Shown here piece by piece: positions 8,088 through 46,454 of a stretch of DNA of 64,000 nucleotides. Within the stretch, counting starts at the first letter, position 1, and each line of letters starts with the position of its first letter. The notes under the pieces were generated by a model, which did not search any database, had not been told where the DNA came from, and saw only the letters and a list, made by a program, of their open reading frames with translations. Source of the DNA: Antitrichia curtipendula (taxonomy: Eukaryota; Streptophyta; Bryopsida; Hypnales; Leucodontaceae); the NCBI GenBank assembly GCA_951230915.1, contig OX579635.1:8246001-8310000 (forward strand), given 5' to 3'. The position numbers and the translations under genes were made by a program.

Positions 8088-8632
8088 TTAATCCTTAAAG
8101 GACATCCTATGTCGAGGCTTGGTCAAACTTCATTAGATTACTACATTAAAAGATAGGTTTCAAAATTTTGATATTTTTCACATGTAGTAACATATGTCTA
8201 ATCTTGTTTTTAATAATTAAAAACATGGAATTGAATTTTATATGATTCTTAAAATAAATTTATGTATAAAAATCATAGTAATTATAAAAATGCTTAAAAT
8301 ACTATGAATTAAAAAAAAAAATGAAAATACTAGTGGCAAACATCATGTTGTAATTGGTGTACATCCTAGAGATTACATGAAGAGAAATTTGATAAAAATA
8401 AAAAGCTCAAAAGTGGTGTGTTTTGAGCTTTTAAGATGCTATCTTGAAAGTGTCATAAAAATCATAATTTTAAAATTTTAAAATAAATAAATAAATGGAA
8501 TAAAAAATAGATTATTGGAGCTATATTTTCTCAGTGAACCTTTAAAATATTTAAAATAAATAACTATGTGAAAATTCAAATACTTTGACTTTCAATGTGT
8601 CCAAGGGGCATGCATTGTCCTCTAAGGGTTAA
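8088..8632. mobile_element. TTAA-bounded MITE-like element, about 545 bp
   Basis: The left end reads TTAATCCTTAAAGGACAT and the right end, reverse complemented, TTAACCCTTAGAGGACAA. Both begin with TTAA, matching the family seen at 30725, 39269, 40865 and 44280. The interior is AT-rich and non-coding. Confidence 0.6.
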
Positions 8633-8845
8633 GCTTAGACATGACTTTCCTCCCAAGCATGGTCTTCCAACTAGCGATATCCCACTACTTTAGCACCTTC
8701 CACAATGTTGCACCTTAAAAAGTAACTAATGGTATGTCCACACTTGGTGTTAGGGATGGTGCTTGCAATTTGAATCCAGTCTCCAAATAGGTTTGCATTC
8801 ATTCCTAAGACCTGTAGTAAGTCGTAGTTTCTAAAATCTTGCCAA

Positions 8846-9066
8846 TTAACGCATAAATGACGAACTAGTGACTATGGAAATCATCTATGTTGATACTATG
8901 GGAATCATTGGTCTAAGAAAATCCAAGAGTACTCATTGAAAGTCAAAGTACTATAGAAGATCTCCCTTTTTCATCCGGGGATGAATAGTTGCACTTATGT
9001 CCTACACTAAAAGATTCTTTATCATCCATCGGAAACCAAATGTTTGCCTCGACATTTAAGGGTTAA
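8846..9066. mobile_element. TTAA-bounded short element, B family (copy at 8.8 kb)
   Basis: The left end is TTAACGCATAAATGACGA and the right end, reverse complemented, TTAACCCTTAAATGTCGA. The interior (AGTACTCATTGAAAGTCAAA, GATGAATAGTTGCACTTATG, CATCCATCGG) matches the copy at 30499-30728 and, inverted, the copy at 45504-45713. No coding capacity. Confidence 0.65.
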
Positions 9067-9353
9067 CTAAATTGAGATTCAGAGGGATTGTTAATTGCCC
9101 AGCTGAAATTTTAAACCACAGGCAGGGTAAAGTCTTAAAATCTAAGACTTGCATAGATCTTGTTCCAGATGGGCATCCTGAGCCTCTCCAATTTCAAATG
9201 GGTGTGACCCGTACAACAGGCACAACGAGGTCACCATAAAAACTAGTTTCATCTGATAATTGAAACAGTAGTTTATACTTCAGTTTTTGGAAATAACGAT
9301 TTGTTCATACCCAAGCTTGTGCTATTTGTCATCGGGGGACATCCAAAGCCTGG

Positions 9354-9390
9354 CTAAGGGTTTAGGGTTAAGGGTTTAGGGTTTAAGGTA
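9354..9390 (+). repeat. Interstitial telomere-type repeat (TTTAGGG)
   Basis: A run of imperfect TTTAGGG/TTAAGGG units, about five in all. This is the plant-type telomeric heptamer and it lies far from any gene, so a small interstitial telomeric relic or repair insertion is more likely than a promoter telo-box. Confidence 0.6.
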
Positions 9391-9831
9391 GTATGCTCTA
9401 AAACCAACCATTTAAGGACCAATCCGCCTTTTTCATAGGTTCCCATGGACAGAAATATTTTTAGATCATTTTCAGGGAAAGAAAAATAGATGTGGAACCT
9501 AACAAAAGTGGTTTTGTATTTTTCCAAGCATTTTTGAGTTATTTATAAATTTTCAAAGATTTGGGACATAGGCCTCTATTTGTGACCGTAGGTCTCCCAA
9601 AATCCGTCCACTTGCAACTTGTAAAGAGAAGTGCGGAAATCAAAGACAATGATTGTCTCTTGCAATAGAAAAATATTTTTTCCTTGACTCATTCAATTGC
9701 TAAATTGGTCCATTTAAGGATCACTTCATCTCTATTCTCCTAGGGTCAATTTGATGGAGAGGGTCGCTTTCAAAGCATACTACCTTATGTGTGACAAATG
9801 ACAATTTGCAGTGAAGAAGTATCAAGCGTTT

Positions 9832-10035
9832 ATGGGGAATTTTGTTAAAATGGCAGTCATTCCACAACTTCGGCACTTTTATGAGCACTTTTATAGTTTA
9901 GACCGTATGCTCTAAACTCTGTACATTTCGATGGTTTAGATTGCGCAGTTTGAAATCTATACCTATTCTAGGCGGTTTAGATTGTGCAGTTTGAAAATGG
10001 TATATGGAATATTTTCATTTTGACAAAATTCTCTA
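9832..10035. mobile_element. MITE-like element, about 200 bp, with GAATTTTGT ends
   Basis: The left end is GGGGAATTTTGTTAAAATGG and the right end, reverse complemented, AGAGAATTTTGTCAAAATGA. It is flanked by TA on each side. Related left ends occur near 7232 and 7679. Internally it carries two GGTTTAGATTG(C/T)GCAGTTTG motifs 52 bases apart. Confidence 0.45.
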
Positions 10036-11307: not shown

Positions 11308-12426
11308 CTAGGAAAAGCATTTACTGAAAAGATCATGATCTTGCCAAATGCTTCCAAATAATAACATAAGGCTGACTAAACAAAGTGCGCCTCCAATAGA
11401 ACTCGTAATGATCATATTTTCTTGCACTTTGAGCATGGGTGTCAACACAATACTCCCCGCGATGGCAAACGCGACAATCACAAAGAACACAGAAAACGCC
11501 AGAAGAATGGTGGTCACCAGCAGATTGACTTGAAGCCTCTCCACCGCGCGCTTGATGAAAAATTTCCTCCTGGGCAACACACTTCTCGCGCCAAAAACAA
11601 CAGTAGCAATGGCAGCGTAAAAGGAAAGACTGTTCGCCACCCAGAACGCTTTCAATCCGCGGTTATGTTCAACATGGACATAGCCTGCTGCGTATCCCAA
11701 GGGCGGTTGCAACCATGAGGCAAAAGTCACGCTTGCAATCAAAGCAGCGCCCACAAGAATAGCATTAGCCGCATCTACATACACTTGCCGATCTCTGTAA
11801 AGCTCCTCCATGTACCGCTGCACGGATTCACATTCCATCAGCGCTCGGTGAATGTCCGTGAGGCGCAGTTTATGAGCATATTCGACAGGAGTTTGGCCAC
11901 CATTAGATTCCTCCGTCAGTCTCAGCCTGTCTTTGTGCTCCAAAAGTTCGCGCACTATGTGAATGTTTCGTGTCTCTACACCCATATGTAAAGCTGTGAG
12001 GCCCAATTTCACATCTACGGCGTTCACATCGACTGCGCATGTTGCCAGGAGCGTTCTGACAATCCCAATATTTTCTCCTCTGACGGCTGTGTGGAGAGCC
12101 GTGCAACCGTATTCCTTGTCCACTGCATTCACATCGACTGCACCTGCTGCTAGTATGTCGGAAACCATCGTTGAATCCTGCATCCTTACTGCCCAGTGAA
12201 GAGCAGTTCCCATTCCCTCTAAGAAATTGCTCATTCGATTCAACTGCTGATTCCTGGCGAATTGCGAAGTGAGAAAGGTGGGAATATCCGCATTTTGATC
12301 AGCCAGAAGCTTATCCACTACAGCAACTACCACCACTTCTGCCCCCTTCTCACCCTTCGAGCCCACGGGCAAATAGCGTAAGTAATTCGCTACTCGCGCT
12401 TCAGATGTCATTGCTGCTGGGTGCAT
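11308..12426 (-). CDS. Ankyrin-repeat protein with C-terminal PGG membrane domain
   Basis: A single coding exon gives 372 residues from the ATG at 12426; the frame stays open to an ATG at 12477, but a good acceptor (ttttgcag|AAGG at 12450) lies between them, so I prefer the inner start. Three or four ankyrin repeats come first, with the GxTALHxAV pattern (GTALHWAVRMQD, GCTALHTAVRGEN, GLTALHMGVETRN, GQTPVEYA). A PGG domain follows (DAANAILVGAALIASVTFAS, a conserved hydrophobic start, then PPLGY), with four hydrophobic segments. Proteins of this plant family (ACD6-like, ITN1-like) sit in the plasma membrane or ER and act in stress or defence signalling; the specific role of this one is unknown. 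A leader exon lies upstream at 13076-13350. Confidence 0.85.
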   Translation of the reverse strand: MHPAAMTSEARVANYLRYLPVGSKGEKGAEVVVVAVVDKLLADQNADIPTFLTSQFARNQQLNRMSNFLEGMGTALHWAVRMQDSTMVSDILAAGAVDVNAVDKEYGCTALHTAVRGENIGIVRTLLATCAVDVNAVDVKLGLTALHMGVETRNIHIVRELLEHKDRLRLTEESNGGQTPVEYAHKLRLTDIHRALMECESVQRYMEELYRDRQVYVDAANAILVGAALIASVTFASWLQPPLGYAAGYVHVEHNRGLKAFWVANSLSFYAAIATVVFGARSVLPRRKFFIKRAVERLQVNLLVTTILLAFSVFFVIVAFAIAGSIVLTPMLKVQENMIITSSIGGALCLVSLMLLFGSIWQDHDLFSKCFS

Positions 12427-13075
12427 CCTTTCCTCCAGCTGCAATCCTTCTGCAAAAATTATGAAAACTGAGTCCATCCTGTCTTAACTCGATAATGAAC
12501 GAACGAGTTCCATTCAAGGAAAATACTCGAGATAGACAATGTAAGTGCGACAGGATAGATCTCTGTAAATAAACTGATCATGCTCTCAAACCGCTATCAA
12601 ACACTAAGCACTACTAACATTGCTTTCAATTAGAATAGCATTCGGCCTGAACTTCTCCTGGTCATCAACACTCCTGGATCTAACCATCGCAACCAAGCAT
12701 ACGTGGTCCTCATCTTCAAATTCGGTTTAAATTGCAAAATTCAAGAACCAAACAAGTTTCCAGTCACCCATCATTAATCTAAGATCTATCTGTAGCTGTC
12801 CTAGCTGTCAGAGCAACGCGTGCACTTGAATGTCACAAGCTTGGCGCTTCCAAAGACGCCAATTTATACCAAATATGACCATCCTCACTCAACCACATGC
12901 ACCAAATCAAATGACTCAAAGCTGTGATTCTGCACCTTGGTTTCTTCTTAAGATAAATAGTGCTCGAGTCTCCTGGCCCTTGAGCATTATTATCCAGTGC
13001 TTATCAGTCTCAAAATCCTCGACAGAAGTGCACAAGAAAACCAAAAAAACGTGACCCACATGGTGTGATTCATAC

Positions 13076-13350: not shown

Positions 13351-13358
13351 GTTTAAAC

Positions 13359-13381
13359 TTTTATTTTCACTCCCCCATTGG
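13359..13381 (-). promoter_or_regulatory. CCAAT and TATA-like motifs, ankyrin-PGG promoter
   Basis: Read on the minus strand, CCAAT (13381-13377) is followed closely by the TATA-like GTGAAAATAAAA (13370-13359), just before the inferred leader exon. Both are seen directly; function is inferred from position. The two are closer together than usual. Confidence 0.35.
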
Positions 13382-13399
13382 ACTCCCGTTCATTAAATT

Positions 13400-14053: not shown

Positions 14054-17000
14054 TCACATCGCCAATTTATCGATCCAAAATTTCATCTGCTCAGCAACAG
14101 GCGCAGCTCCTGTGGAACCGTATGATCGGAACTTGGCTATGGAGTTCTCCACACCTAAGAAGGTGTAAACGTCTTCCTCAAAAACGGGGTTAATTTTTCG
14201 GAGCTCCTCCAGGGAAAGATCCTTAAGCTCTACTCTCTTGCTGACTGCAATTGCTACAGCCTTTCCCACAATATCATGGGAAGTTCGGAAAGGTATGCCC
14301 TGGATTACAATGACAGAGAACGGAAGCTTAAAATGCTAGGAGCTACTAAATAGAAGACATTAATGGAAATAGTCAAAAGATACACAAAAATGAAAGGAGA
14401 TCTTTGAAATGAATTGCGAAATTGTAAGTTAGTGTCGGTACCTTGTAAACAAGATAGTCAGCTAAGGTTGTCGCATCCAGATGCCCAGCTGGCAATGACT
14501 TCGCAATACGTTCCTTATTAAAAGTAACATTCTGAGCAAACTCGGCAGTCACGTCCAGCACGGTATTGATGGTTTCTACACTGTCAAACAGTGGCTCCTT
14601 ATCCTCCTGCAGCACCCACCAATTCGTTATCACCGAAGAAAAGGGAAATTACAACTATTGGGGTTGCTCGATTTAAGGACGAAAAATAAAAACCTTCAAA
14701 CCAAAAAGTACAATTACTGCAGGCCAAACTAATTCTAGTACTTTTAACAATAAGTTTGAATTAGAACAATCGTTATTTAATACGTAGTTTAGTACAAGTC
14801 GTGTACGAATATGGCATCAGGACATTAAAAGTTCTGTTAGAAGAAAAAAGTTCCATAAGATACAAAACATGATGTAAATTCCAGTACACACCACAGTAAT
14901 TGGAAATTTTGGTGTAATTACTACTGAAAAGTCTCAACTCACTTGGAGGTCGCGGTTGTAGGCCATGGGAAGGCCCTTGCACAAAACCATGAGCGTTGTG
15001 AGGTCTCCAATCACTCGAGCTGACTTCCCTCGAACCAACTCCATGGGGTCTGGATTTTTCTTTTGTGGCATGATACTGCTCCCAGTCGATACAGCGTCAC
15101 TAGGCGTTAAGAAACCAAACTCTTCCGAGGCCCAAAGTACCCATTCCTCCGCAAGGCGAGACAGATGAATTGCAATGATGGAATTGGCGCTCAATAGCTC
15201 GATCAGAAAATCGCGGTCGGCAACAGCATCCACACTGAATGGGACGACAAGTAACGTTAGCATAGCAATATGCAAATGATAACACACACCAATTCAGGAA
15301 TAACAAGACAAAAATCTTGAGTATGACGATAACTATTACCATCCCAAGGTCGTGGTGATCATGTTGCAATCTAACCATGGAATTTAAATGAGGTGCTCGC
15401 ACCTGTTCCGAAGTGGTGCAGAGAAACCCAGTGCTTGCGCAGTATTATGTCGGTCAATGGGAAGTCCAGTGCCCGCCAAAGCACACGCACCTAGAGGAGA
15501 AAAATTGAGCCGTGCCTGGCAGTCCAGAAGGCGAGAAGTGTCTCGCTCTAACTGGAGTCCACCGAAGAAAATAGCATGTTAGTAAAACTTTTCCGGAAGA
15601 CATAAAAAGTCACAAAAGCCATGCATTGTGATAGAGATTAACATTCTAATTAACCATGCTCAGATCAGATGATCCATTCTAAAAATGTATGTATGCCAAT
15701 GCATAGATGCTCCAAAAATAGGTTAGTGGTCGTACCATTTCCACAAAAGCCAACAAAAGGTGTTGCAAAAGTAGTGGTTGTGCCCGCTGAAGATGAGTAT
15801 AACCAGGAACTACCAAACCCTCGTTTTCCACAGCAAGCTGGACCAAGGCAACCTGCATTATCCAGAATTGAGTCACTGTCATATTCTGGCATTAATTAAA
15901 TTTATATGGTGATGCATCAAGCCATGACAAGTGAATTGCATTATTCAAATATGCATTCTGTTTCATTCCTCACGCTACTACATCTCACTTACCAGTCAAA
16001 ATACACGAGATTGAATCAAACCGCAATCAAAGGATATTAACTTAGAAAGGAAGCTATCGTCTACACAAATTTTAATTTCATTCGCTATTAGGACTCAATC
16101 CCTTATCTCCCTACCTGCAAATATTTAATTCGCTTCACGATGTCGTTGATAGCATCTCGACACCATAACCGCACATCTGTAACAACCTGGAATGCTTGAT
16201 ATCAGCGAATCTAGAAAAATTGCCCATCAGAGAGAACTGCCCTTGAACACGAGGTCTCAAAAACAACTAAGGGCCGAAAAAACTTTCAAACTACTAATTC
16301 CCTGATTTGTGGGAGTGAACCTCAACTACAAGCAACCCAGCAACCCGAAATAGTGCGATATACAAAAGCAAACCCTGGGATTTATACAAACACATGCAAC
16401 ACAAACCTGATCATTCCTACTCCGTGCTGTATGCAGCTTCTTAGCTGGTTCGCCAACAAGTTCAATAAGCGCAGCCTCTACATTCATGTGAACATCTTCT
16501 CTGTCAGCTCTCCAGTTGAAATTTCCGTCAACTATGCGCTTCTCGATTTCGTCAATGCCGTTCAAAATTGCATCTCGGTCCTCCTCAGTCATGATACCCT
16601 GCAGAATGCAACAATTGAACTCTTGCAAAATTCTGAAAACCACCACTTTACTATACCGATTATGAAATAACCTCAGTCTTTCAAAAATGTACAAAAAGGC
16701 AGTTCGATATACCTGCTTAGCAAGCATGGAAGCATGAGCTCGGCTTCCCATGAGATCATGCTTGTAAAGCCTCCAGTCGTAGGATACCGACTGTCCAAAC
16801 TTCTCCACCGCAGGAGTAACACCCTTCTCAAACCGGCCCCCCCATAACTTGGCCTCTTTGGGCTTCTCCGTGGTCTCTGTTTGGGTCCCCTCAGCTGCTG
16901 TATTAATAGCCTGCATCCTGCACTGTCTTGGAGCAGAGTTTCGAAAGACGAGAGGCGTCTTCAACAAGGAATTTCCACTATTCAAGGAGGAGAGAGAGGT

Positions 17001-17084
17001 TACAGAAGGCTTGGTGCACATGAGATGACCTTCCATCTCACCAAGAACTCCATGGACACTTCCGAGAAGACTCAATTGCTGCAT
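14054..17084 (-). CDS. ASL: Argininosuccinate lyase, plastid-targeted form
   Basis: Eight exons on the minus strand: 17084-16713, 16598-16407, 16186-16115, 15852-15736, 15551-15403, 15234-14943, 14606-14442 and 14299-14054. All junctions are GT-AG and the phases agree, giving about 534 residues. The enzyme splits argininosuccinate into arginine and fumarate, the last step of arginine synthesis, as a homotetramer, in the plastid in plants. The first ~75 residues are Ser/Thr/Leu-rich and look like a transit peptide; the conserved body starts [11 protein letters not shown]. Family landmarks are TARSRNDQ (end of exon 2), [10 protein letters not shown] (exon 4, catalytic His region) and the fumarase/aspartase signature [12 protein letters not shown] (exon 6, mobile catalytic Ser loop). 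Body length and order are normal, and no break was seen. The C-terminal exon ends FWIDKLAM. Confidence 0.95.
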
Positions 17085-21528: not shown

Positions 21529-23460
21529 TATGTAAGGATGACCAATAATAAAGTGAGTCACAATAGGGGAGTGTTTGCATGTGAGCATAGAATCTATGAG
21601 ATTATGAGCCTAGGAGACTATATTATAGACACTTTCTATAATTATAGGTGTTTGTGTTATAAAAAAATTTCATATCATAGTGCATCTATGTTATAGGTAC
21701 ATAGGTTATAAACACCTTCAAATGGTTATAGACACATACCTACAATTAGGTTCAAGGCTCATAGGCTCATGTTTTTGCACACATGTTCTAGCATCGTTGG
21801 TCATAATGGGGCCAAAACCTTCAACGAGTTGGGTGCCAGTATTACTTTGTCCCAAATAGTGATTACAAGATTGTCAACAAACTTTTTGAAGAAAGTGACA
21901 TAAATAATAAAGTGCTTATTATATATGTACTAACCCCAAGTTTGGAGATAGAGCATGTGGCAACTTCTTCTACCATAACTCCCTCTAGTAAACATTTATA
22001 TATTACAATAGTGTTCACCTTTGTAGACAAATATCACACAAAGTAAGGAAATTTTTGTGCTACTTGTGCATTTTTGAAGAGTACACATTATTTTCAGAGT
22101 AAGAACTTATCCCTACCTTGTGATTAAATAGGCCCCGTATTCTCTAATGACAACCATTTACATTAAACATTCCTACGTACGATAAGTTGGCATGTAGAAA
22201 TGTTTATCTTCACAGGAAATTTAAAAAAACAAATTGTCCTGGGAAACCACATATGCTAAAAAAAAGCATCTACGCATGGTTCTTTTTTAACCCCTCAATG
22301 CCATAAAAAGTTTCAATGTTTGTGGACCAACTTAGAGAAGTTTGACAAACTTTTACTTTTTCTCTAGTCACATCATTTTTTTTCTAACAATACCAAAATT
22401 GATTTTGGGATGAAAATTAGAATAAAAATAATAAATACTTGTAGAAGCATCTTTAGGTGGTAAAAGGTTAGATTATCTTAAATTTTGTTGGCAAAAGAAA
22501 TAAAATTTAGATCCTCTTAACCCTTTAAGACCTAAATCCTTTGATGAAATTTTGTATCTTTCTGCATATATCATTATGCAAATATATCATTTATTTCAAA
22601 TTCAACAAACTAGTCATTAATCTCTAAAGTCCTAAGGTCTTTTCATCAAATTCCACTTAAAATTGCCATTTCTATTGCAAAATGCAAGAGTTTTGAAAAT
22701 TGTCTTTTTGCATATCTAACCATAGGATCTTGCACTGTCTAGACTAATATAAAAATAGATCAAAGAAAATTTAAAAACTTTGACCGTGTGGATTGCAAAA
22801 TATTAACATTTGAAGTAAAGAAATTTGATTTTTTTGCACCTTGCTTGTCTAGATTGCAACAATGTTAGCATGTAAGCATAGAAATGTGAGCCTATGAACT
22901 TTGAGCATATGTACAAGTAGATAACCTACAACCATTGATGGTGCTTATATAACATAAGTATCCAATAATCATAGAAGGTTTGTATAATATAGACGCCTAT
23001 AACATACTGGTACAATCTTCTAGACTCATAAGCTCATGATTCTAGGTTGATATCCATAATAGCAAACATGGTTTAGGTTGTAAGGCATGGAATCTTCTTA
23101 GTTTAGAATTTTTGCACTATACATGTTGAATTTAAAATTTTTATGTTGAAGAATTGAGTTGAAAGTCTAGAAAAAAAATCACAAAAAACATACACTTGAT
23201 TTCCATTCTTTAAAAAATTGTTGAGTAGAAGTAGATTCAAAATCAAAAGAAAAACTAAATCGTTAATAACTCTAACTAAAGATGGAACTGAAACACAATA
23301 ATCATGACAATGAGATTGTCCAAGTAAGAAAACCTAACCCTAACAAATTTAATTTTTTTAAAGTTGTAAATTGCAATCCAAAAATTAATCCTATAAGTTA
23401 TTTTCTCAAATAGATGCTTAGAATGCCTGAAAAACAAGATTTTCTAATTTTTTAATCATG
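21529..23460. other. AT-rich DNA with fragments of TTAA-type repeats
   Basis: TTAACCCCTCAATG near 22288 looks like an isolated TTAA-family end. Two direct copies of a TTAA(C/T)C...CTTT..ATCAAATT motif of about 38 bases start near 22514 and 22616. No gene. Confidence 0.4.
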
Positions 23461-23659
23461 CACTATAAAAAAAAAACTGTTTTGTTGGACATTAGCAGTA
23501 AACACATAAATTTTTCAAAACAAGAACACAAAGATAGGATTGCAACCCTAAGAGGCAGACTTGAGTTGGATGTTCTAAAAAACGTTTTCATGTCACAAGC
23601 AAAAGAAGTTGATGTCTTGTGCAACAATGGCAATGATGTTCCGAGAGACATAAAAAAAA

Positions 23660-23970
23660 CATTACAAAAAATATGAGGCCTCAACAAGGCCGTGAGTGCT
23701 GATTTTCGGGACCCGCGGGTGATATTACGGAAAAAAAAAAAAAAAAAATCTTTTTTATTTTGAAAAAAAAAAATAATTTTTTTTTTTTTCCCGAAAAAAA
23801 AAATTGAAAAGTGACGTCACGCTGATGTGGCGCTGACGTCAGCGCTGGCGTGGAACTTCGACCACGTCAGAATTTCAGTTTCTGAATTTTTTTTTTGAAA
23901 AAACCCTCCGTAGTATCACTACGGGGTCCAGGCTTAACGGCCTTCCGGAGGCCTCATATTTTTTGTAATG
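23660..23970. mobile_element. Foldback/MITE-like insertion nested in the CACTA element
   Basis: It starts CATTACAAAAAATATGAGGC and ends with its reverse complement. The inverted similarity goes on for about 75-85 bases through AAGGCCGT, GGACCC and GTGATAxTACGG. The core has poly-A/poly-T tracts and a GC-richer island with two perfect palindromes, GTGACGTCAC (23811-23820) and CGCTGACGTCAGCG (23831-23844). No target duplication could be assigned. Confidence 0.6.
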
Positions 23971-24507
23971 CCACAGTTGTCTTCTGTACAATGTCCAAGA
24001 AAACATAGAACTGCCATGTTGGCAAGGGGTTTGGGTTTAGGTTTGGATAAGTTAGTGAAAGTTATTATAAGTTGAGGTAAGACCCTGACCAAACTATGAT
24101 TAATTTTTTTTGAAATGACACTTGATGTTGCATTTGAATGACATGGCCTCCAACAAGGATGAAGTGGCATGCAACATCAGCTCAATTTAATGTCATCTAA
24201 GAATTTTAACAATGGTTTTTTAAACATCTATTGAGATGTCAACAAAGACATCAACTGAGACGTCCAAATCTTTTTTTTGACGTTAGCTTTGACAGCTTTG
24301 TAAAATTCAGAAAATTCACATATCCCATATTGTTTGTCTTCCCTCCTACCACCCCACTTGTATAAATAGTTTGTTTTCTCATATCAATATACACACAATA
24401 AATGGCTTTTCAAGCCATGCAACATAAATATCAAATATGGTGTATTTTGTATGATGTACAATGTATGGCATATTGTGTCTAATATATAATATATGGTGTA
24501 AGTCAAA

Positions 24508-24680
24508 GTTGATGTTGCAAACAATCTAGACGTTGGAGTTGATGTCTCAAAAAATTTCTAGATGTCTAAGTTGATGTCTCAAAAAATGTCTAGATGTCTA
24601 AGTTGATGTCGCTAAAAACAATATCATAATTCTTCTTGATGTCTAAATTGATGTTGCTCAAAACAATATTAATCTTTTTA
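24508..24680. repeat. Tandem 32-bp GTTGATGTC repeats in the CACTA element
   Basis: Five units beginning (G/A)TTGATGT; two central ones are nearly identical and 32 bases long (GTTGATGTCTCAAAAAAT, then TCTAGATGTCTAA). The fourth is about 45 bases. They probably serve as subterminal repeats. Confidence 0.6.
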
Positions 24681-25006
24681 GATAGCGTGACATCAAGTGC
24701 AACGTCAGTTGCCACATCATCTCCAAGTTGGGTGAAAAAATTTCCATATGGCACTACCCACCTACATGGCACTTATGTGGAGGTGACATGGCTACCATGT
24801 GGCACACTTTTGGTTCCTTCTTTGACCATATCTATGCAAATGTCACACTAAAAACATGGCACATTTTCTCATATTTTACCATATTTTTGTCATGTTAATC
24901 TTGACAGATTTTTTTGGACATCAACGGGAACATACCTAACATTAAAAAAAACGTATTTGCATGTTTTTTAGCTTGTCCAAAAAAACGCAAATTTCTTACA
25001 GTGATG

Positions 25007-26225
25007 AGTCCAAATAGAATGAATCACTAAATCTTTCCATATAAACAAGAATACTTTCTATAAAAAACAAAGTTTTGAAATTTTTATTTTTATTTTTGTA
25101 AGTTTTTTTGGTGTTGCCCAATGAACCTGTTTTAGACTTAGAGTGGCATAACTTTGCTTTTGGATATTGATTGAAATAAAAATTATATTCCCAAAAAACT
25201 GACATGTTTTCTTGTTTTTGAAAAAAAAATCAAAAAAACACATTGCAATCATAGGAACCCTACCCAAAATTCATTTTGTCCTCTAAAGGGACAATGGAAC
25301 CCTAGGGATTAACACAAGAAGGACATTGAGGAGAATAAGTGTCCAATGAATGACAAGAAATTCTTCACTGTAGGATAGAACTACAACTATTCATCTTTGG
25401 ATTTTTTTGTGGAAAGTGGAGAACATCTACAGTTGCTTGACTTCCAATTAGTACTTTTGGATTTTTTTTATTCCAATGACTCTCATGGTTACACAATGCA
25501 TGATTTCCAAGGTCACCTCCCACGTCGTCTCAAGGTTAAAAAAGGTTTGTCTTTTTAAGAATTCAAATATTACTTGGGATGAGTGAAAAGTTATTTGGAC
25601 AAAACATTGAATAGAAGTGCTTCCCATGTATTGAATTACAACAACCACATATTTCAACCACATATTTGTATACTTGGTTGATAATTGTTTTGAATGTAAT
25701 CCTTGTGTGATACCCCATGGGGTTCAAATCTTTGGAGCATAGTGGTTAATTTATCATTATTGCAATGACACAATGCAATGGTTGTCACTTGCTCACAACT
25801 CATACTTCTAACTACTTGTGGGACTATTTTGGGATTGTATAAGAATCAGATTTAGTGTGTTCACATGAAATTGACCAAACAATTCCTGTAGCGATGTCCA
25901 TAGAATTGTTGCCGGGTACTGTTGAAGGGAAGAATATGTAGGGGTCAGGTTTGCAACGCGGCCACAACTGCGTGTACTTACCTTACTACATAGTACTGTA
26001 GGAAGAATGCATCCCATGCAAAGCCCCAACGCAGATCTTAAATTCAGGATCTTGGAAGTTTACCTCCTGTTTCAAAATTGGTAGAGCAGTAGAAGGCTGC
26101 TGAATTCACGTTTACTGAGAGTCCAGTGGAAACGTTCCGCATAACATTTTTGAACAAATTCACATACTAGATTTCTAAACGTAGGATTTTATGACACCAC
26201 CTCTATGAACAATTAGCCCTAGTCA
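25007..26225. other. Spacer with an inverted fragment of the C-family element
   Basis: 25230-25308 resembles the reverse complement of the left end of the element at 43273, finishing CCCTAGGGATTAA. It is followed by a B-family-like segment to about 25445. The last part (from about 25900) is the probable 3' untranslated region of the GEM-like gene. Confidence 0.4.
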
Positions 26226-30498: not shown

Positions 30499-30728
30499 TT
30501 AACCCTTAAACGATGAGGGGGTGACCTTGAAAATCATTCCTTTTCATTACCATGTGAATCATTGGCTTAAGAAATAGCAAAAGTACTCATTGGAAGTCAA
30601 ACTACTATAGAAGACCTCTCCTCTTTACAACAAAATTTTGAAGATGAATAGTTGTACTTTTGTCCTACTACAATGATTCCTTGTCATCCATCGGACATTT
30701 GGAGTCCGTGTCGACGTTCAAGGGTTAA
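30499..30728. mobile_element. TTAA-bounded short element, B family (copy at 30.5 kb)
   Basis: The left end is TTAACCCTTAAACGATGA and the right end, reverse complemented, TTAACCCTTGAACGTCGA. The interior matches the copies at 8846-9066 and, inverted, 45504-45713. Its right TTAA is also the left TTAA of the next element. Confidence 0.65.
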
Positions 30729-31376
30729 CCCCTAAATGTCCAAGCCTTTTTTGAGCTTCTAGGAATTTGCTCTAAATTGAACAAAAAGCCAACATTTTGA
30801 TAAGTTTATTATTATTTTTTGAATTATAACAGAACAAATTCAAACTAGACATTTTAGAGATCACATTGAAAAAGAAAACACAACAATATCACTTATGGAT
30901 TGAAAGATTATAATGTTTGATTATGATGGTATTAAAACTGTGAAAGTGATTTGAAGTCTTTCAATCCTTTTTTCACATGTCAAAACTAAAGTTGGTCACC
31001 CCAAAAAATATGGAGATAAAGGGCCTAACACACATAACCCCAATCAATTTATGGCTTCTCAAAATCTACTTTACGATTTTTTTAAATGGATCTCTAATGT
31101 AATTTTTTCTCCAAGATCTAATGTATTTGAGGCTCATTTTCAAGAGCCCTCAACACTACATAAAGTCAAGATTGCAATGGACACCCTTGTATAAAATCTC
31201 GAATAGAAAAGTTTTAATCAATCATTTTCAAAATCAGATTTTTGATGCTAAAACTAGACTCTAAAAATATTTTTCCAAAATACAAACTACTAAAAATAAC
31301 AACTTGGTTAGGTTTTATTTCAACTTCAAAGTATTGTCAACACCAAAATTTGGTACCTTGGACATTTAGGGGTTAA
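30725..31376. mobile_element. TTAA-bounded element, A family, forward copy (652 bp)
   Basis: The left end is TTAACCCCTAAATGTCCAAG and the right end, reverse complemented, is the same 20 bases. The full interior is similar to the reverse complement of 44280-44924. AT-rich, no coding frame. Confidence 0.75.
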
Positions 31377-31560
31377 TAGATGAGTTGGGCACCGTGTGAA
31401 TAGTTGGCTTCAAAAAATGAAAAATCACTCATTAGAAGACAAACTATTGTTACAGTAGCTTTTTACACAAAATTTGGAAGATGAATAGTTGCACTTATGT
31501 CTTAAATGAAGAGATTCTTTGTCATAACCGGTTGTTGAGTTTTCAACGCTCACGTGGCAC
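31377..31560. repeat. Partial B-family copy
   Basis: The segment around 31420-31510 carries the B-family landmarks (ACTCATTAGAAGACAAACTA, GATGAATAGTTGCACTTATG) directly after the A element. Its right end is lost in a different sequence beginning CATAACCGGTTGT, which reappears inverted near 31684. Confidence 0.5.
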
Positions 31561-31939
31561 CGTCCCATTGGCAACCCATCACCATTGCCATAACAAGTTG
31601 CAACTCATAACCTTCTTTCCTTTCAACTTACTTCCTACACCCTCGGATCATGAAGATCAAAGGTTTTGATTGGAAAATGTACAACCGGTTATGTACAATA
31701 ACCTATTCGCCGCTAGCGCGGCTCATTGGTTATTTAATACATTCATCAGCCAAAAAACGTCCTCCGTGTTGTTTATGGGTTAATAGCACAAAGCTCTCAA
31801 AACTATAACTGGTGTAGACGATGTTCTAAAATTTTGCCAATTTCTTCCGCTGTAACGACTAGATGGGGGAATATGTAGTGCGTGTGTTCAATTTTCTGCG
31901 GTGTACGTACGGAATTTTGGTTACAGAGTGGTAGTTATG

Positions 31940-33364: not shown

Positions 33365-34454
33365 TTAATAATACTCTGACTCCACATGTTTCATGTAGTT
33401 AGGATTCGTGACAGGAACATTACTCAACGACACTTGCGGCCGGAGGAGGGCGGGCCGCTGGTTGTGGTGCGGGACATAGTGACTCTCCGCCATGCCCGGC
33501 CGGAACTCGTTCCCCATGGAAATATACTCCGCGTCGTGGAAGCGATGATTCTTGAACGACGGCATGCGGCGCACGCCGTAGAATTCACGCTGCAGGTTCA
33601 CAGGCTCAAACGCGTTCGCCTGTCGACCATCATACCGCTGAACTCGCCCAAACGAGGGTTCCCGGTTCATGCGTCTGTCGAACGAGTTCACACGCTGCAG
33701 CTGTTGGGGGATCATCGGTGCTTGCATCACGGGAGCTCGCATCATGGGCGGCATCTGACCCTCGTGAGGGAAGCGGCCGAAGCCGCTGGAGTTCGCGCGG
33801 ACGAGTGGGTTCGCTGTGTAGCGCGAGTCGCGGACGAGTGGATTCGTTGTGTAGCGCGACTCGCTAAAGCCGTTGGCGCTGGCGAGCGCGTTGTTGTTTC
33901 GAGCACTCTCGATAGGGAGGCTGGTGGCGTTGATGTAGGTGCTGTTGTTGAAGAAGGAGGATTTCTTCTTCACCTTCTTGACTTTCCGGAGAGCTTTCAA
34001 CGGGTCCACGAAGCCAGTGACGGTCACGCGCTGGTTGTACTGGTCGCAGATCACGTCGCGCACACCGTCCAGCTCCTCGAGCTCCTCCTTCACTTTCTCC
34101 TGGCACTTCTCGCAGCACATGGGCACTGTAAGCTCTAACACGGGGAGCTTCGTATTGAGCCCATCGAGCGACTGGAAGCCACGGTTCTGATACATGTACG
34201 CGTTGGGGTAGTCGAGATCATCTTTGCTTGAGAAGAGCTGCACCATTGGAAAACAGATATGGAACACAGGGTCAAGAAAGTAAATATGGAACACAGAAAT
34301 TTCAACATATCTGAACCACAAAATCCCTATCACGAATTAAAGCGGAATACGAAGCACCTTAACTAGTAATCAAGACATGCACGCCCACAACAACGTAAGA
34401 ATGGGACAGGTTAAGCAGTACCTCCTTGATTCCCTCTTTCACCCGACTCGCCAT
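33365..34454 (-). CDS. Heavy-metal-associated (HMA) domain protein
   Basis: Two exons: 34454-34422 (MASRVKEGIKE) and 34237-33365, in phase, giving 301 residues. An HMA fold runs at about residues 43-105: LPVLELTVPMCCEKCQEK with the metal-binding CxxC (C53, C56), GVRDVICDQYNQRVTVTG, then DPLKALRKVKKVKKKSS. The remaining ~195 residues are low-complexity and Arg/Asn/Met/Pro-rich, including a tandem SRYTTNPLVR/SRYTANPLVR. Plant proteins of this type (HPP/HIPP) bind or ferry soft metals. The C-terminus is ESEYY with no CaaX box, so it belongs with the non-isoprenylated HPP type. The start is supported by the spliced short first exon and the TATA box 186 bases upstream. A 250-residue frame on the opposite strand is a shadow of the GC-rich exon. 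Confidence 0.88.
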
Positions 34455-35873: not shown

Positions 35874-36842
35874 TTAATCCCTAAAGGTTTAAACACCATT
35901 TTTTGGCAACATAACAATTTTAGGCAGCTTAATACAAACGGAGTTTTTAATTTTTTTCTTTGAAATTTTCACACAATATATATCCAAGGAGTAGCTCTAG
36001 TCACAAAAAAATTTAAACTTTTGGCTACATGGTTAGAAAGTTATTGCATGAAATGTAATTTTCATTACTTGATGGCTAATCCCAGTAGATCAAAAAAAAT
36101 TCTTTAAAAATCACTGTTTTAAGAAAAGAAAATTTGAAATTGATTTTCTAGACTTATATACATGTAGAAAGCTTTGAATCATTCCATTTTAATAATGAGA
36201 TGAACGTTATGAGGAATTTTAGTTTTTGTAGGTTGTTATGGAATCTCTACTCTAAGATAAACTTTGAAGTCCTTTATTTAACTCAATTTTTAATACTTTT
36301 TGAAAAAAGTGAAAACATTGGGTGTAGATTGTTTATTACAACATTACAACCATTGGGATTGACACTTTTCAATTTCATAACTAAATTCTTAACAATTATA
36401 ATTCGTACTTTAAATCTCTGCTTGTTTTAAATCTCTACTTTTAATACTCTACTTGTTTCTACTTATTATGTTTTTCAAGAATGAATATGAAATTTTATTT
36501 ATTTATAATTTTTAATAGGTATTTTCAATTTATTTCTTCAAGATATTATGGAGAATAACAAGTTATAGGATCTACACATTTTTGTATAAAAGTTTGAAAG
36601 ATTATATCTAATCATTTGAAAAAAGCTGAAAATACTTATTTTTGAAATTCAAGCACTTGATCTTGAAATAGGTAAAATTCTTATTCTGAAATTTTAAGAG
36701 GGTCTACTCTAACATGTTAATTAAAGGATCATATGGTGGATTTGTTAATGAATAATTATAAATGATGATTTTAGCCTTGCTTTGGGTCTTTGTACCTTAA
36801 AGCATTTTTGGGCCTTAAAAACACCAAAATCTTTAGGGGGTA
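35874..36842. mobile_element. TTAA-type element, C family, copy 1
   Basis: Begins TTAATCCCTAAAGGTTTAAA. The first ~580 bases are colinear with 39269-39860 (TTTGAAATTTTCACACAA, AGGAGTAGCT, TAAACTTTGAAGTCCTTTAT, GGTGTAGATTGTTTATTACA). The right end is degraded (AAAATCTTTAGGGGGTAG). Non-coding. Confidence 0.6.
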
Positions 36843-39268: not shown

Positions 39269-40213
39269 TTAAAGGACCAAACACCGTTTTTTGACAACAT
39301 AGCGTTTTTGGGCAGCTCACCACGAATGGAATTTTTTATTTTTTTTCTTTGAAATTTTCACACAAGATGTGCCCAAGGAGTAGCTTTAGGGCCCAAAAAT
39401 TTTCATAACTTTTGACCACATGGTTAAAAAGTTATGGTATGATATGTAGTTTTCATTGTTTGGCGGGCAGCCCAGGCAGCAAAAAAAACTTCTTTAAAAA
39501 TCATTTTCTAGAGAAATAAAAATTTGAAATTGGTTCTCTAGATTTATGTGCACAAGGAAAGCTTTCAATCATTCCACTTTGATTTATAAGATGAAAGTTA
39601 TGAGGAACTTTAGTTGTGGGTATTTTGCGGGTAGTTATGGAATCTCTATTCTAAAATAAACTTTGAAGTCCTTTATTTAACTCAATTTTCAATATTTTGG
39701 GAAAAAAATATAAACATAAGGTGTAGATTGTTTATTACAACATTAGAATCGTTTGGATTGGCATTTTTCAATTCCATAATTAAATCCTTAACAATTTAGT
39801 GTTTTGAATCATTTTCTACTTCTTTCTACTTACTATTTTTTTCCTATATGTTGTACATTTCCAAATGATCTGAAATTTTTCAAGCATGTAGCTAACTTGC
39901 TTTGAAAAATTAATCCAAAGAGTTACCACCATTTTGGACATTTTTCATACAAATGTGACCATGTGAAGTGCAGCTGCCCGTTTTTTCACAGGGACAAAAA
40001 AAGGGGTTTTGTCACTTCAAATGCTAATATCTTGCAATCTACACGGTGGAAATTTCTGAAATTTTTCCACATCTTCTCAAACTAGTTTACTACAAGATCC
40101 TACGGTCACATGTGTCCAAAAATGTTTTTTTTCCAAAATTTGGTACTTGTACTAGAAATGGCAGTTTGGGAGCGTTTTTTGTGAAAACATAGTCAAAAAC
40201 CTTTAGGGGTTAA
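39269..40213. mobile_element. TTAA-type element, C family, copy 2, inside STP exon (945 bp)
   Basis: Right end TTTAGGGGTTAA at 40213; left end TTAAAGGACCAAACACC at 39269, which seems to have lost the CCCC part of the terminal repeat. Transporter homology stops at 40214 and resumes at 39268. Removing the element leaves one TTAA in a continuous transporter exon. Non-coding. Confidence 0.75.
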
Positions 40214-40864: not shown

Positions 40865-41832
40865 TTAACCCCTCACCGTCCAAAGTCCAACCATGCTTAA
40901 AAAATGCCTGCCATTGCAAGTCTGAAAAGTCAAAATTAGAGTGAGGTATGAAGATCTCAACCGTACAATATTGTAATGTGTATGTTTTAGATGGTGTGGA
41001 ACAAATTTGGGGTCATTTCACCGTTTAGATTGAAAGATTATAATGTTTTAGTGTACAAAAAAGGTGCTGAAATTTTCTTAAAATCACATTTGGAGGTGAA
41101 ATTCGATTTCTAAACCTACTCAAATGAAAAAACTATAAGCTACAAAGTGATTCAAATCCATAATTTAAACACTTTGGTAAAAAGAATCTCATAAAAATGA
41201 ATCATTGTGTCTACAAAATGGATTTGAAATGTCCAAAAACAGTGAAAAAAGGAGCAAAAAATCACATCTATAATTGAACCTCCTTCTACTAAAATGCTTC
41301 TCAGACAATCAAAAATTCTTGGATTGATATTTAATTCTAGCCACAAAAACTAGACAAGTATACGCAACTTCTCCAATAAGAATTTTTGAAAAAGGATCAT
41401 GTATGAAGTAGTTATGAGCCGCCGAAGTTGACTGAAATGCAATAATATCTGGATTTTGAACTTCGAATTGCTCCCAAGAACTCAAAACAACTTGGATTGG
41501 CATGAAAATTTTACCACAATAACTAGACCTTAAGGGGTACAAAACGCAACAAATTTGGTTGAAAACAAACATTTTGGAAAAAGATACAAGCCCCCAAAGT
41601 TGCATTTATCACAACGCAGTGTGCTGAACAAAAGTTGACCCTATGAACTTTGAATGGCTTGCGCAAACTCAATTCGTCTTGGATAGATCTGAAAATTTTA
41701 CCATAGAAATTATACTGGTATGCGCAATTTTTCCAATAATTTTTATTGAATTTGGACATCGGATGCAAAAGTTATAGTGCTTCAAAGTTTGTGTGGGGAC
41801 ACTTTTCGTCCTCTTGGGCGGTGAGGGGTTAA
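40865..41832. mobile_element. TTAA-bounded element, D family, inside STP exon 1 (968 bp)
   Basis: The left end is TTAACCCCTCACCGTCCAAA and the right end, reverse complemented, TTAACCCCTCACCGCCCAAG. Outside it the minus-strand frame continues (CLGLVCIS upstream, LSFRQWLMFGYDV downstream) across a single TTAA. Interior non-coding. Confidence 0.8.
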
Positions 41833-41870
41833 GGAAATACAAACCAAACCTAGGGACAATATTGTTTGGC

Positions 41871-43272
41871 ATGGTTAGTGTTTGATCTCCACCATAGACA
41901 TTAGGGCTTCACGAGCCATTATATTAAAAAATGCTCACCCACAAAGTTGCAAGTCTCAACAATTAGCAATTTAATAAATTCTACAACAATATAAGGTTGC
42001 ATGGCTTCATATTTCATTACTTGTATATTTTAACTTCTAAAATAATACTCCACTTCACATCAATATTTACCAATTTTTTTTTGCTAAAGCTTAGTTAAAA
42101 AAATCTTATAACAACAAATCATGGTGTTTCAAAATTATTTTTGTGAACACCACTAATAGGTACAATTCTTTAAAGTCTCACAAGAAGGACAAGGATGTAT
42201 GCTTTTATTTAGAGATTTGGTAGTAGGATCAAAGAAGTAGTATAAGAGGACACTCTTTCCTATCTATTTTCACATCTTTGGATCTAAAGTAGTTGTGCAA
42301 AAAGCACAAGCAATATATCAACAAGAGACCATAATTTTTCTTCTTGAAATTTAACTAGTTACTCATAGTCCTTGTAAGCCAAAGGAATTTGCAACTTTTT
42401 GTTTAATTTTTAAACATGATTTTACTATTTTTAAAATTTAAATATATTAAAATATCTTATTTTTTGTAATTTTCTATAAACCTTTTTTGAATAGTTTGAA
42501 GATTTTTTTTTAAGATTGATTAATAGGCAAACAAAATGCACACCATCTATCATGTCTATTTAAGTGAGTTAAATGTGAATATATTATGGCATCAAGTTGT
42601 ATATATATACATGGCTTTAATCTCTTAATTAATCAATCCCTTTGACTCTTGCTTGCATCACCAACACACAAAAGTGCCAATAAAACATTATACATTCTAT
42701 TAACCCAAGACTTTGGCCCTCTTATAGGGTGATGAAATTGGAAATGTACAATGTGTAAAGAGCATTTTGTACAAAATTAAACAAGACAACTGCAACAAAC
42801 TAAATTTGTTCTAATAGCAAGAAAATTGCCTTCAAATTTATATGTTATGAGCATATGCAAAGCATTACCATAAAATCCTCACTTTTCAAACAATCCAACT
42901 TTTGTCATCATGGTATATGTGTTATATTTCAAGGTAAGAAAAATATACAATGACGGGTTACATCACTCTAACTGGATAATTATAAGGGAAAAAGACCTTT
43001 ATCCACCCTTGTCCAATTTCATTTCCTAATTATCCTATAAAAATAATTCTATGGTTTCTTGTGGAGAATTGGAAGAGTATCACAAATTTATTTTGTGACA
43101 CAAGGAGTAATAGAAAATAACCCTTAAACAACATAGTGGCCGTTTTTTGGCAAAGAATGACAAAGAATTTTTCCATATAGAACAAACATATAACTATTCA
43201 TTTTGAATTTTTGTGCTAAAAGGGGAGGGCTTCTTCAAAAGTTTGACTTCCAAAGAATGCTTTGGGGATTTT
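41871..43272. other. AT-rich spacer
   Basis: No gene recognised. 43130-43270 resembles an inverted, diverged B-family copy (CTATTCATTTTGAATTTTTG, TTTGACTTCCAAAGAATG). Confidence 0.4.
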
Positions 43273-44217
43273 TTTACCCCTAAAGGACCATTGTTCCTTC
43301 GGGGGACAAATGAAATTTCGGGCAGGTACCTATAGGCTAAATTTTTGTCATAATTTTTTGAATTTTTTTTTGAAGATATAAAAATTGATTAGCTTCATGG
43401 GAATATAATCTTTTTTTTCAATTGGCGCCTAGAAATAAAATTTATGCCCAAGTAAGCTCAAAACAAGGAAAAGTAGTCAACAAAAAAAAATTGCAAACAT
43501 TTGAATCTGAATTATTATTATTATTTTTTCCTCATAGATTATTTTTTGTCTATCTAGTAAGCTTTAAATTCATTTCATTTGGATTTGTTATGAGAAAGTT
43601 ATGGACAATCTTGTTTTTTAGGCAATTAGAACATCTTCTTGAAAAATATAACTTGTAGGATTCATTTTCGAATGCAATTTTTGCAATTTTTCAAAAACAA
43701 AAGTTCTATAGGGTTTAGTTTTCTTGCTAGAACAATCTTACCATTGGGATTAGTGCATTTTAACTCCATCTAAAAGATATTAATATTTTAGATTTTCCTG
43801 CTATCTTGTATCTACTTCTACTTAACAATTTTTCAAAGAATGAAAATTAAGTCTTTTTGAATATCTTTTTTTCCCCTAGATTGTCAACTCAATTCATCAC
43901 TATAAAGATTTAAAGCTCAAGACTCTATAGTGCAAAAACTTTAAGTTAAAAATGTTTGAGGTCGAATAATCTAGTCCCACAATGTATTGAAAAATTTGTT
44001 TTTTTCACCTTAAATGTAGATATCTTGTCATCTATGCAGTCAAAAATACTGAAATTTTTTCCACACATTCTCACATTCTCGTACTGTCTAGTTACTTGTA
44101 AGATCCTACAGTTAGATGTGCAAAAAAAAAAATTCAAATTTTTTTACTCTTTGCTATGGAAATGACAGTTTTGAGTGTTTTCTGACAAAGAAAAGACCTT
44201 GGTCCTTTAGGGATTAA
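43273..44217. mobile_element. TTAA-type element, C family, copy 3 (945 bp)
   Basis: Begins TTTACCCCTAAAGGACCATT (first base of TTAA context mutated) and ends GGTCCTTTAGGGATTAA. The right 200 bases match 40010-40213 (ATATCTTG, TACTGAAATTTTTTCCACA, AAGATCCTACAGT). It has the same length as copy 2. Confidence 0.65.
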
Positions 44218-44279
44218 CCAATCATTCACACTATACCAAAATAGATGAATTTCAAGGTCACTAATCCATCCTTCAAGGG

Positions 44280-44924
44280 TTAACCCCTAAATGCCCGAGG
44301 CACCCAAATTTGGTGTTTGCAAAACTTTGAAGTTAAATAAAACTTAACCAAGTTGCTATTTTTAGTAGTTTATATTTTTGGAAAGTTCTTCTTGAAGTCT
44401 AGTTTTAGAATTAAAAATCCGATCTTGAAAATAAATGATAGTGATTTTTCTACTCAAGATTTTGTGCAAGGGTACCCATTGCAATCTTGACTTCCCGTAG
44501 TGTTGAGAGCTCTTGTAAATGAGCCTCAAATACACTAGATCTTGGAGAAAAAATCACATTAAAAATTCATTTAAAAAAGTTATAGAGTAGATTTTAAGAA
44601 GCCATAAATTGATTGGGGTTATACATGTTAGGTCCTTTAACATCATATTTTTTTGGTCACCAACTTTTTAGATTTGACTTGTGAAAAGAGGATTGAAAGA
44701 TTTGTGCAGTTTTAACACCCTCATAGTCAAACATTATAATCTTTCACTCCATAAGTGATATTGTTGTGTTTTCTTTTCCTATGAGATATCTAACATGTCT
44801 AGTTTGAATTTGTACGGTTACAATTCGAAAAAAACTGATACAACTTATCAAAATGTTGGCATTTTGTTCAATTTTGAGCAAATTCCAAGCAGCTCAAAAC
44901 AGGCCTTGGGCATTTAGGGGTTAA
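44280..44924. mobile_element. TTAA-bounded element, A family, inverted copy (645 bp)
   Basis: Left end TTAACCCCTAAATGCCCGAG; right end, reverse complemented, TTAACCCCTAAATGCCCAAG. End-to-end similar to the reverse complement of 30725-31376, for example GAAAACACAACAATATCACT and ATAACCCCAATCAATTTATG. Confidence 0.75.
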
Positions 44925-45503
44925 ACAATCCATTTCAGGTTCTACTCCAATCCCAAAGCCAAATTAATTTACCAATCAAATCTTGATTATGGGTCAAGTT
45001 TATGGACCCCGCAAGGCTAGTTGAGAAGGTTAGTTATCTGAAATCTAGATTGGAATTCAAAATCGTTTGAATTTTACACATATATTTATAGATACAGGTT
45101 TGGTTTCTTTATGAAAGAAAACCATTCAGATCCTTTTCCAAAGCTCTCATGACCAAAAATCCATAGAGGATAGGAATAAAATGCATCACCTAGAAGGCAT
45201 TCTCCACAAAATGTAAAGTAACTACACCTAAAATGGCACACTATCAAAAATCGCACACTAGAGATTCTTGCTCCCACTATCCGTGACAATCTATGATCGC
45301 TTATAAGAACACCTCATTTCAGCACTTTGAAATTTTATAGTTTATTTTTATTGTGTCTAAAAAATGCATTATAAGAGAATCTAGAATCTCCTTATCACTA
45401 CCAACTCAATCCAATAAAAAGTTTTTTTCAATATAATTATGTAAACCATACTAAATTGCTTATTTGTGCAATTTTCAGGTGTACTTATCTTATTACTCTG
45501 ACA
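44925..45503. other. Spacer between A and B family elements
   Basis: AT-rich, no gene or complete repeat recognised. Confidence 0.4.
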
Positions 45504-45713
45504 TTAATCTTTGAACATCGACACGGACATCTAGCATCCATTGGATGACAGGAAACCTTCTAATAGGACAAAAGTGCAACTATTCATCTTTAAAATCTTA
45601 TTGTGAAAAGGAGGTCTTCTATAGTAATTTGACTTCCAATAAGCACCTTTTCTATTTCTTAAGTCGATGATTCACTCGGTAATGAAAAAAGATGATTTCA
45701 CTTTGTTGTTTAA
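45504..45713. mobile_element. TTAA-bounded short element, B family, inverted copy
   Basis: Reverse complement of the 30499-30728 element (GACAAAAGTGCAACTATTCA, GGAGGTCTTCTATAGTA). TTAA stands at both ends; the right TTAA is shared with the next element. Confidence 0.65.
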
Positions 45714-46454
45714 CCCCTAAATGACGGACCTATAACCACTGATTTCAGGCCTCAGTGCCTATCACTCAATTTGCTGCCATTTTGCAACTAGATATGTATG
45801 AAAAAAATTTAATTTATTTTTCAGAGATGAAATTACATGTCTTCTTTACTTCACAAAAAATTTAGATTTTTTTGTGGAAAATTGATTTTTTTGAGAATTT
45901 TTGAAGAAAAAGAGAAGAAAAATCACATCAAATAGAAATTTATTTCAAAAAAACTGAAAATTTCACCATGTGTGTTTATTACAATGACAAACATCATGGT
46001 GTAAAATCAATTTCCGTCTCATTCTATAATTAGAAAATAATAGACATTGAAAATACACCCAAAGTTCAAATTGCAATAAAATATGCAATATTAAATTTTT
46101 TTTCAAAATTCAAATTGGAGAAGAAACTAAATTAGACTACCTTCATTTTGTTAGTTGGGCTCAAACTCAAAAAATATCATTTTTGTGGAGAAATTTCAGA
46201 TTTAGGGCACGGAACAACAACTTCCCAAAATACACTAAAATAGCATATTTTGTGATCCGTTTTTTTTTAATAACTTCTCATTTATGTGAAGATAGACACT
46301 TGCATGACTACAAATTCAACTATACACTCTTTGTAATCCACCATGGAGGGTGAGCAAAAATGAAATGGATGAAAAAAAGTTTCCAAGCAATGTACAGATG
46401 ACTGCACAATCATCCAAACGCCACAAAATGGCTGTCCCGGCGTTACAGGGTTAA
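45710..46454. mobile_element. TTAA-bounded element, E type (745 bp)
   Basis: The left end is TTAACCCCTAAATGACGGAC and the right end, reverse complemented, TTAACCCTGTAACGCCGGGA. The ends match less well than in families A and D. Non-coding. Confidence 0.5.

What the first reader, a model, noticed from the sequence alone, without database searches (positions are those of the whole stretch)
8088..46454. A TTAA-bounded MITE superfamily with TTAACCCCTAAA-type ends
At least nine elements of about 0.2-1 kb (8088, 8846, 30499, 30725, 39269, 40865, 43273, 44280, 45710) start with TTAA plus CCCCTAAA, CCCCTCACC or CCCTTAAA and end with the reverse complement. Interiors fall into several unrelated groups (A-E), but the outer 10-14 bases are shared, as if one transposase mobilises many different cargoes. 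TTAA target preference is the hallmark of piggyBac, which is rarely reported in plants.
Basis: partly seen in the sequence, partly recalled or inferred. Interest (0 to 1): 0.85.

Follow-up and report, generated by a model that had tools for sequence, protein, structure and literature searches.

The report
piggyBac MITEs in a moss-like plant
A land-plant genome that looks like a moss carries thousands of short mobile DNA elements that sit at TTAA, and at least one group of them shares its end with larger piggyBac-type transposons of the same genome that encode a transposase with its catalytic residues in place; piggyBac is well studied in animals but little described in plants.

Summary
TTAACCCCTAAATG occurs 3011 times in the 400-Mb host genome against 1 for the reversed control. 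Thirteen aligned group A copies stay conserved up to TTAA and not beyond, and an interrupted copy shows a 4-bp TTAA duplication. The genome holds at least 116 piggyBac transposase domains (PF13843; 906 candidates, 116 scored). One was read: a 556-aa frame with aspartate at the positions of D268, D346, D447 and D450. The element carrying it starts with an end that matches the right end of the 45710-46454 MITE (85% over 46 bp). The same subterminal motif lies 2.6-2.8 kb upstream, same strand, of three further transposase domains and never on the outer side (100 of 252 places examined). Plant piggyBac has been listed before: a large new member of a known kind.

The parts
8088..8632 (.). Element E1, 545 bp, drifted ends (TTAATCC / TTAACCC inverted)
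   Evidence: 10 of 12 inner end bases match; no relative found
8846..9066 (+). Group B element E2, 221 bp
   Evidence: 72% identical to E3 end to end; right end ranks 3rd of 3634 TTAA sites for the transposase-type end profile
22617..25312 (-). Group D element enlarged by internal insertions
   Evidence: three stretches match E7 in order; TTAA at both ends (by eye)
25309..25539 (-). Group B element B3, sharing TTAA 25309-25312 with the D element
   Evidence: 76% identical to E3 over 206 bp; alignment; right end 5th
30499..30728 (+). Group B element E3, 230 bp, sharing TTAA 30725-30728 with E4
30725..31376 (+). Group A element E4, 652 bp, 20-bp perfect terminal repeat
31391..31783 (+). Damaged group B copy (start unclear) with an inner insertion
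   Evidence: 73% match to E3 51-189; end at 31783 ranks 2nd
35882..36397 (+). Fragment of a D element like E5
   Evidence: 80% identical to E5 over 529 bp
39269..40213 (+). Group D element E5, left end cut back
   Evidence: 81% to L004 end to end; left end TTAAAGG
40865..41832 (+). Group C element E6, 968 bp, 20-bp terminal repeat (95%)
   Evidence: partial copies in L008 and L029
43118..44283 (-). Group B copy B5 split by E7
   Evidence: both halves match E3/E2; alignment of joined halves
43273..44217 (+). Group D element E7, 945 bp, inserted in B5; left TTAA decayed to TTTA
   Evidence: 28 of 40 scored genome copies span exactly 1-945
44280..44924 (-). Group A element E8, 645 bp, sharing TTAA 44280-44283 with B5
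   Evidence: 84% to E4, up to 95% to copies on C1
45504..45713 (-). Group B element B4, sharing TTAA 45710-45713 with E9
   Evidence: 82% to E3 over 198 bp; right end 4th
45710..46454 (-). Group E element E9, 745 bp
   Evidence: 82% to L025 copy end to end; right end matches the end of a transposase-bearing element and ranks 1st

Best explanation
The elements are non-autonomous piggyBac transposons (MITEs) of a bryophyte, probably a moss. Larger elements of the same genome (at least 4.8 kb in the one that was read, a nested insertion included) encode a DDD transposase of the piggyBac superfamily. By inference it binds the terminal TTAACCC... and a subterminal motif that ends in GGATGA at positions 40-45, cuts the element out at TTAA and joins it into another TTAA, which then stands on both sides. 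DNA with suitable ends can be carried whatever its interior, so several unrelated AT-rich interiors have multiplied. Shown: TTAA boundaries, one clear 4-bp TTAA duplication, thousands of copies, a transposase with the catalytic aspartates, and the same end on that element and on group E. Weaker: B and A by end similarity. Inferred: cut-and-paste chemistry, mobilisation in trans, and that C and D belong here.
For: 3011 copies against 1 control. Group A conserved from TTAA inwards, at most 0.70 bits per position outside, 13 copies. Natural empty site with TTAA duplicated. 116 of 116 scored candidates (906 at first look) match PF13843. Transposase 556-aa frame: PF13843 6.6e-80, PDB 6x67 3e-24 with all four key aspartates facing aspartate. 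End of that element against E9: 85% over 46 bp. Profile of five transposase-type ends ranks E9, five B ends and two A ends within the top nine of 3634 TTAA sites. Subterminal motif 2592, 2632 and 2759 bp upstream, same strand, of three scored transposase domains, 0 on the outer side, 0.29 expected per side within 10 kb.
Against: The 3' end of a transposase-bearing element was not reached. E-group left ends and A-group ends showed no excess near transposases. C and D ends and the E9 left end are not in the top 22 of the profile ranking. Only two of the five ends in that profile (L059, L061) belong to an element whose transposase was located. The 97% copy on C8 has lost its TTAA.
Confidence: 0.92

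Rival explanations
1. The MITEs belong to another TTAA-specific superfamily (Kolobok; Sola3 is recalled as another) and the piggyBac genes are unrelated residents of the genome.
For: Kolobok also makes TTAA duplications (PMC9587614, passages). C and D are not tied to a transposase here.
Against: Kolobok termini are 5'-RR, these are 5'-CC. Group E ends sit at a fixed distance from piggyBac domains.
Confidence: 0.04
2. Groups A, B and E are piggyBac MITEs, but C, D and the lone 8088 element are moved by separate piggyBac lineages or are older, unrelated TTAA elements that look alike by convergence on CCC ends.
For: Several transposase lineages exist; C and D ends do not rank in the end profile.
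Against: They share TTAACCCCTAAA or TTAACCCCTCACC, and the D element also duplicates TTAA. This is a variant of the best explanation rather than its opposite.
Confidence: 0.45
3. The ends are pieces of a satellite or of telomere-like DNA (CCCTAAA).
For: CCCTAAA resembles the plant telomere unit (recalled), and a short AGGGTTT array lies at 9357-9389.
Against: Copies are dispersed and balanced over strands, 1514 and 1497, of fixed length, with unrelated flanks.
Confidence: 0.01

Closest known systems
piggyBac superfamily (Trichoplusia ni piggyBac, PDB 6x67; piggyBat, PDB 9c0f)
   Same: TTAA duplication, CCC-type ends (PMC10813416, passages), PF13843 transposase, four conserved aspartates (positions from PMC2533014, abstract), C-terminal cysteine cluster (by eye)
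   Different: Plant host; long N-terminal open frame rich in Arg, Gly and Ser upstream of the transposase frame, without a Pfam match; element at least 4.8 kb against 2.4-2.5 kb for the moth element; very large MITE complement
piggyBac MITEs of corals, Daphnia and insects (PMC2872659, PMC3849761, PMC4912750, seen as listings)
   Same: Short TTAA-bounded derivatives without coding capacity
   Different: Those are animal elements; only listings were seen
Kolobok / T2-MITE
   Same: TTAA-specific 4-bp duplication (PMC9587614, passages)
   Different: 5'-RR termini; here 5'-CC
PiggyBac fragments annotated in the fern Ceratopteris (1230 fragments, PMC6890710, passages)
   Same: Annotation of the superfamily in a seedless plant
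   Different: No ends, duplications or transposases described in the passages seen

Membership tests
piggyBac | TTAA target, duplicated on insertion | tested here: met
   Empty-site comparison, D element in an A copy; boundaries of 13 A copies
piggyBac | Ends beginning CCC after TTAA | tested here: met
   13 of 18 window ends; CCCTC/CCCTT/CCCAT motifs in PMC10813416 (passages)
piggyBac | DDE_Tnp_1_7 transposase in an element with the same end | tested here: met
   For group E. For C and D not shown
piggyBac | Catalytic D268, D346, D447 (and D450) | tested here: met
   All four face aspartate in the alignment to 6x67, one transposase examined
piggyBac | Transposase gene bounded by both ends at TTAA | tested here: inconclusive
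   5' end read, 3' end not reached by C6:12413110
piggyBac | Excision without footprint | not testable with these tools
   Needs an assay or population data
Kolobok | 5'-RR ... YY-3' termini | tested here: not met
   5'-CC after TTAA at most ends; rule from PMC9587614
PIF-Harbinger | 3-bp TWA duplication (recalled) | tested here: not met
   Four bases TTAA stand on both sides of the D element and once in the uninterrupted relative

The most novel reading that the evidence does not exclude
Bryophytes host a large, diversified piggyBac radiation: hundreds of transposase genes of several lineages, many with long N-terminal extensions, which together move several unrelated MITE families through a shared dozen-base end. 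It would be the first well-documented plant piggyBac system and a source of plant-adapted, footprint-free transposases.
Probability: 0.4. Interest if true: 0.7.

Novelty: new member of a known kind. Interest (0 to 1): 0.5.

Why it matters
piggyBac is a major tool because it leaves no scar, yet its natural history in plants is little described: a 2010 review calls relatives in plants, fungi and animals probably inactive (PMC2874221, passages). A plant genome with at least 116 transposase domains, many without a stop, and thousands of MITEs lets one ask how piggyBac spreads and is tamed in plants, and whether a native plant transposase moves MITEs in trans.

Tried and rejected
Satellite or telomere origin: rejected. 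A window-only test of terminal repeats at TTAA against 15 other palindromic 4-mers was too weak to decide. Reading 900 bp past five transposases to find 3' ends failed: two of five stretches hold a TTAA, none holds GGGTTAA. E-group left ends: none of the 100 listed (of 460) lies within 10 kb of the 116 scored transposases. A-group 14-mers: among the first 100 listed places (C1 up to 8.97 Mb, five scored transposases), by eye the nearest is 5.4 kb away, no more than chance. A moss paper that listed 'piggybac' uses the word for expression piggybacking (PMC10619864). The upstream open frame (471 aa given) has no Pfam match. Counting CCCCTAAATGCCCAAGGC with and without TTAA did not complete. Literature searches: (listings); passages read; abstract and outline. 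No bryophyte piggyBac description appeared in what I saw; subscription papers are mostly not held.
Full report
Setting. The window is G000:C3:8246001-8310000 of a 400-Mb, 303-contig assembly. Its genes are those of a land plant (Lyase_1, HMA, ankyrin-PGG and AAA proteins).

The elements. All nine are at the stated places. With ends set as, TTAA stands at 17 of 18 ends and TTAACCC at 13 of 18. Inverted repeats of 20-22 bp with 95-100% match bound 30725-31376, 44280-44924 and 40865-41832. Self-comparison gives groups A (30725, 44280), B (8846, 30499 and four more: 25309-25539, 45504-45713, 43118-44283 split by another element, and a damaged one ending at 31783), C (40865), D (39269, 43273, 22617-25312 and a fragment at 35882) and E (45710); 8088 has no relative in the DNA at hand. 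None of the 14 open frames of 150 aa or more in the window lies in one of the nine elements. A window-only test of terminal repeats was weak.

Genome-wide. TTAACCCCTAAATG occurs 3011 times (1514 and 1497 on the two strands) against 1 for the pattern read backwards. The E-group left end has 460 places at up to 2 mismatches, control 0. The 43273 element has 8290 candidates at first look; of the 40 scored (the window copy included) 28 span exactly 1-945, the others at 81-85% identity. In 13 group A copies, chosen from 30 loci and the window for near full length, conservation starts at TTAA and is at most 0.70 bits per position in the 20 positions outside on either side. In one search, 62 of 64 copy edges read TTAA and two are one base off; but only alignments that reach the last base of the query were counted, 30 loci had been chosen by one TTAA end, and four pairs of loci overlap, so that figure leans upward.

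Empty site. At C1:1145026-1146604 a group A copy is interrupted by a D element. The uninterrupted relative 44280-44924 has one TTAA at that point; in the interrupted copy TTAA stands on both sides of the D element. In the window the D element 43273-44217 likewise splits a B copy, though there one TTAA reads TTTA.

The transposase. PF13843, the piggyBac transposase family, gives 906 first-look candidates in this genome; 116 were scored and all 116 match, best E 5e-80; the search rings in 0 of 14 control genomes, which the answer does not name. Around one of them, C6:12407840-12413110 was read. A stop-to-stop frame of 556 aa (C6:12410413-12412080) matches PF13843 over 5-349 of 349 at 6.6e-80 and piggyBac, PDB 6x67, at 3e-24; D268, D346, D447 and D450 of piggyBac all face aspartate (positions from the abstract of PMC2533014). 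A C-terminal cysteine cluster is present by eye. An upstream open frame of 476 aa, rich in Arg, Gly and Ser, is separated from it by one TAG. Of 99 relatives in the protein collection the four best are 62-75% identical; most rows are unnamed or 'hypothetical protein'.

The link. That element begins TTAACCCAGTAACG... at C6:12407877. Its first 45 bases match the right end of the 45710-46454 MITE at 85% over 46 columns (E 1e-7 within the 4.9-kb stretch; 86% over 49, E 2e-6, against all DNA then at hand). A search with the next 1000 bases found related 5' regions; seven of them, besides the query's own place, start at query base 1, and I read five: three carry TTAA (L061, L062, L064), one ATAA (L063), and the 97% copy on C8 a decayed end (L060). 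A profile of L059 and L061-L064, TTAA not scored, was run over 3634 oriented TTAA sites in 264 kb: the E9 right end, not used to build it, came first; B right ends came second to sixth; A ends seventh and ninth; C ends, D ends and the E9 left end are not in the top 22. AATT, TATA and ATAT sites reach -8.5 at best; eleven TTAA sites lie above that. Of the five profile ends only L059 and L061 belong to elements whose transposase was located. The 23-base subterminal motif has 252 places at up to 2 mismatches, control 0. Of the 100 listed, three (all among the 17 exact ones) lie 2592, 2632 and 2759 bp upstream, same strand, of a scored transposase domain; none lies on the outer side; 0.29 would be expected within 10 kb per side. 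Thirty of the 100 pair with a listed E-group left end facing them within 3 kb, 24 of these at 697-704 bp, the length of the E MITE. So one terminus bounds both MITEs and transposase-bearing elements.

Not shown. The 3' end of a transposase-bearing element was not reached. C and D are tied to piggyBac only by TTAA and CCC-type ends. Several transposase lineages exist (five sampled C-terminal pieces, 28-71% identical), so one enzyme for all groups is a guess. Present activity is not shown; the closest A copies in the sample are 95% identical to 44280-44924.

Known or new. Kolobok shares TTAA but has 5'-RR termini (PMC9587614, passages); piggyBac ends are CCCTT, CCCTC and the like (PMC10813416, passages). 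piggyBac is listed for all groups including land plants in a 2015 survey (PMC4438587, passages) and for plants, probably inactive, in a 2010 review (PMC2874221, passages); a fern annotation lists 1230 fragments (PMC6890710, passages). In some searches no description of a bryophyte piggyBac system appeared. I file it as a new, unusually large member of a known kind.

Noticed in passing
window 25309-25312, 30725-30728, 44280-44283, 45710-45713: Four of six B copies share one TTAA with a neighbouring element, as if elements insert into the TTAA at another's edge. Genome-wide, 72 of 3011 A-type ends are preceded by GGG (2.4%, head-to-head pairs counted twice) against about 0.7% from base composition (own estimate).
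   Followed up: partly
window about 23661-23972: Another inverted-repeat element (ends ATTACAAAAAATATGAGGCCTC...) inside the enlarged D element, seen by eye.
   Followed up: no
window 31508-31708: A 39-nt inverted repeat (74%) around 123 nt inside the damaged B copy.
   Followed up: no
G000:C6:12408982-12410409: A 476-aa open frame with Arg-Gly-rich stretches upstream of the transposase frame; other listed transposases have open frames up to 1261 aa. No Pfam match.
   Followed up: partly
G000:C6:12407900-12412707 and C6:24582061-24586984: Two transposase-bearing elements are 97% identical in the 3' flank but only 67-75% in the 5' flank, which hints at exchange between elements.
   Followed up: no
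G000:C3:15764644-15765571: A D-element copy lies about 3.2 kb from a scored transposase domain at C3:15768731; may be chance.
   Followed up: no
window 9357-9389: Short array of the plant telomere-like unit AGGGTTT, 4.7 copies.
   Followed up: no
window 11308-12483, 16326-17084, 33365-34336, 48884-49453 (minus strand): Host gene exons: ankyrin-PGG protein, lyase, HMA protein, AAA ATPase.
   Followed up: partly
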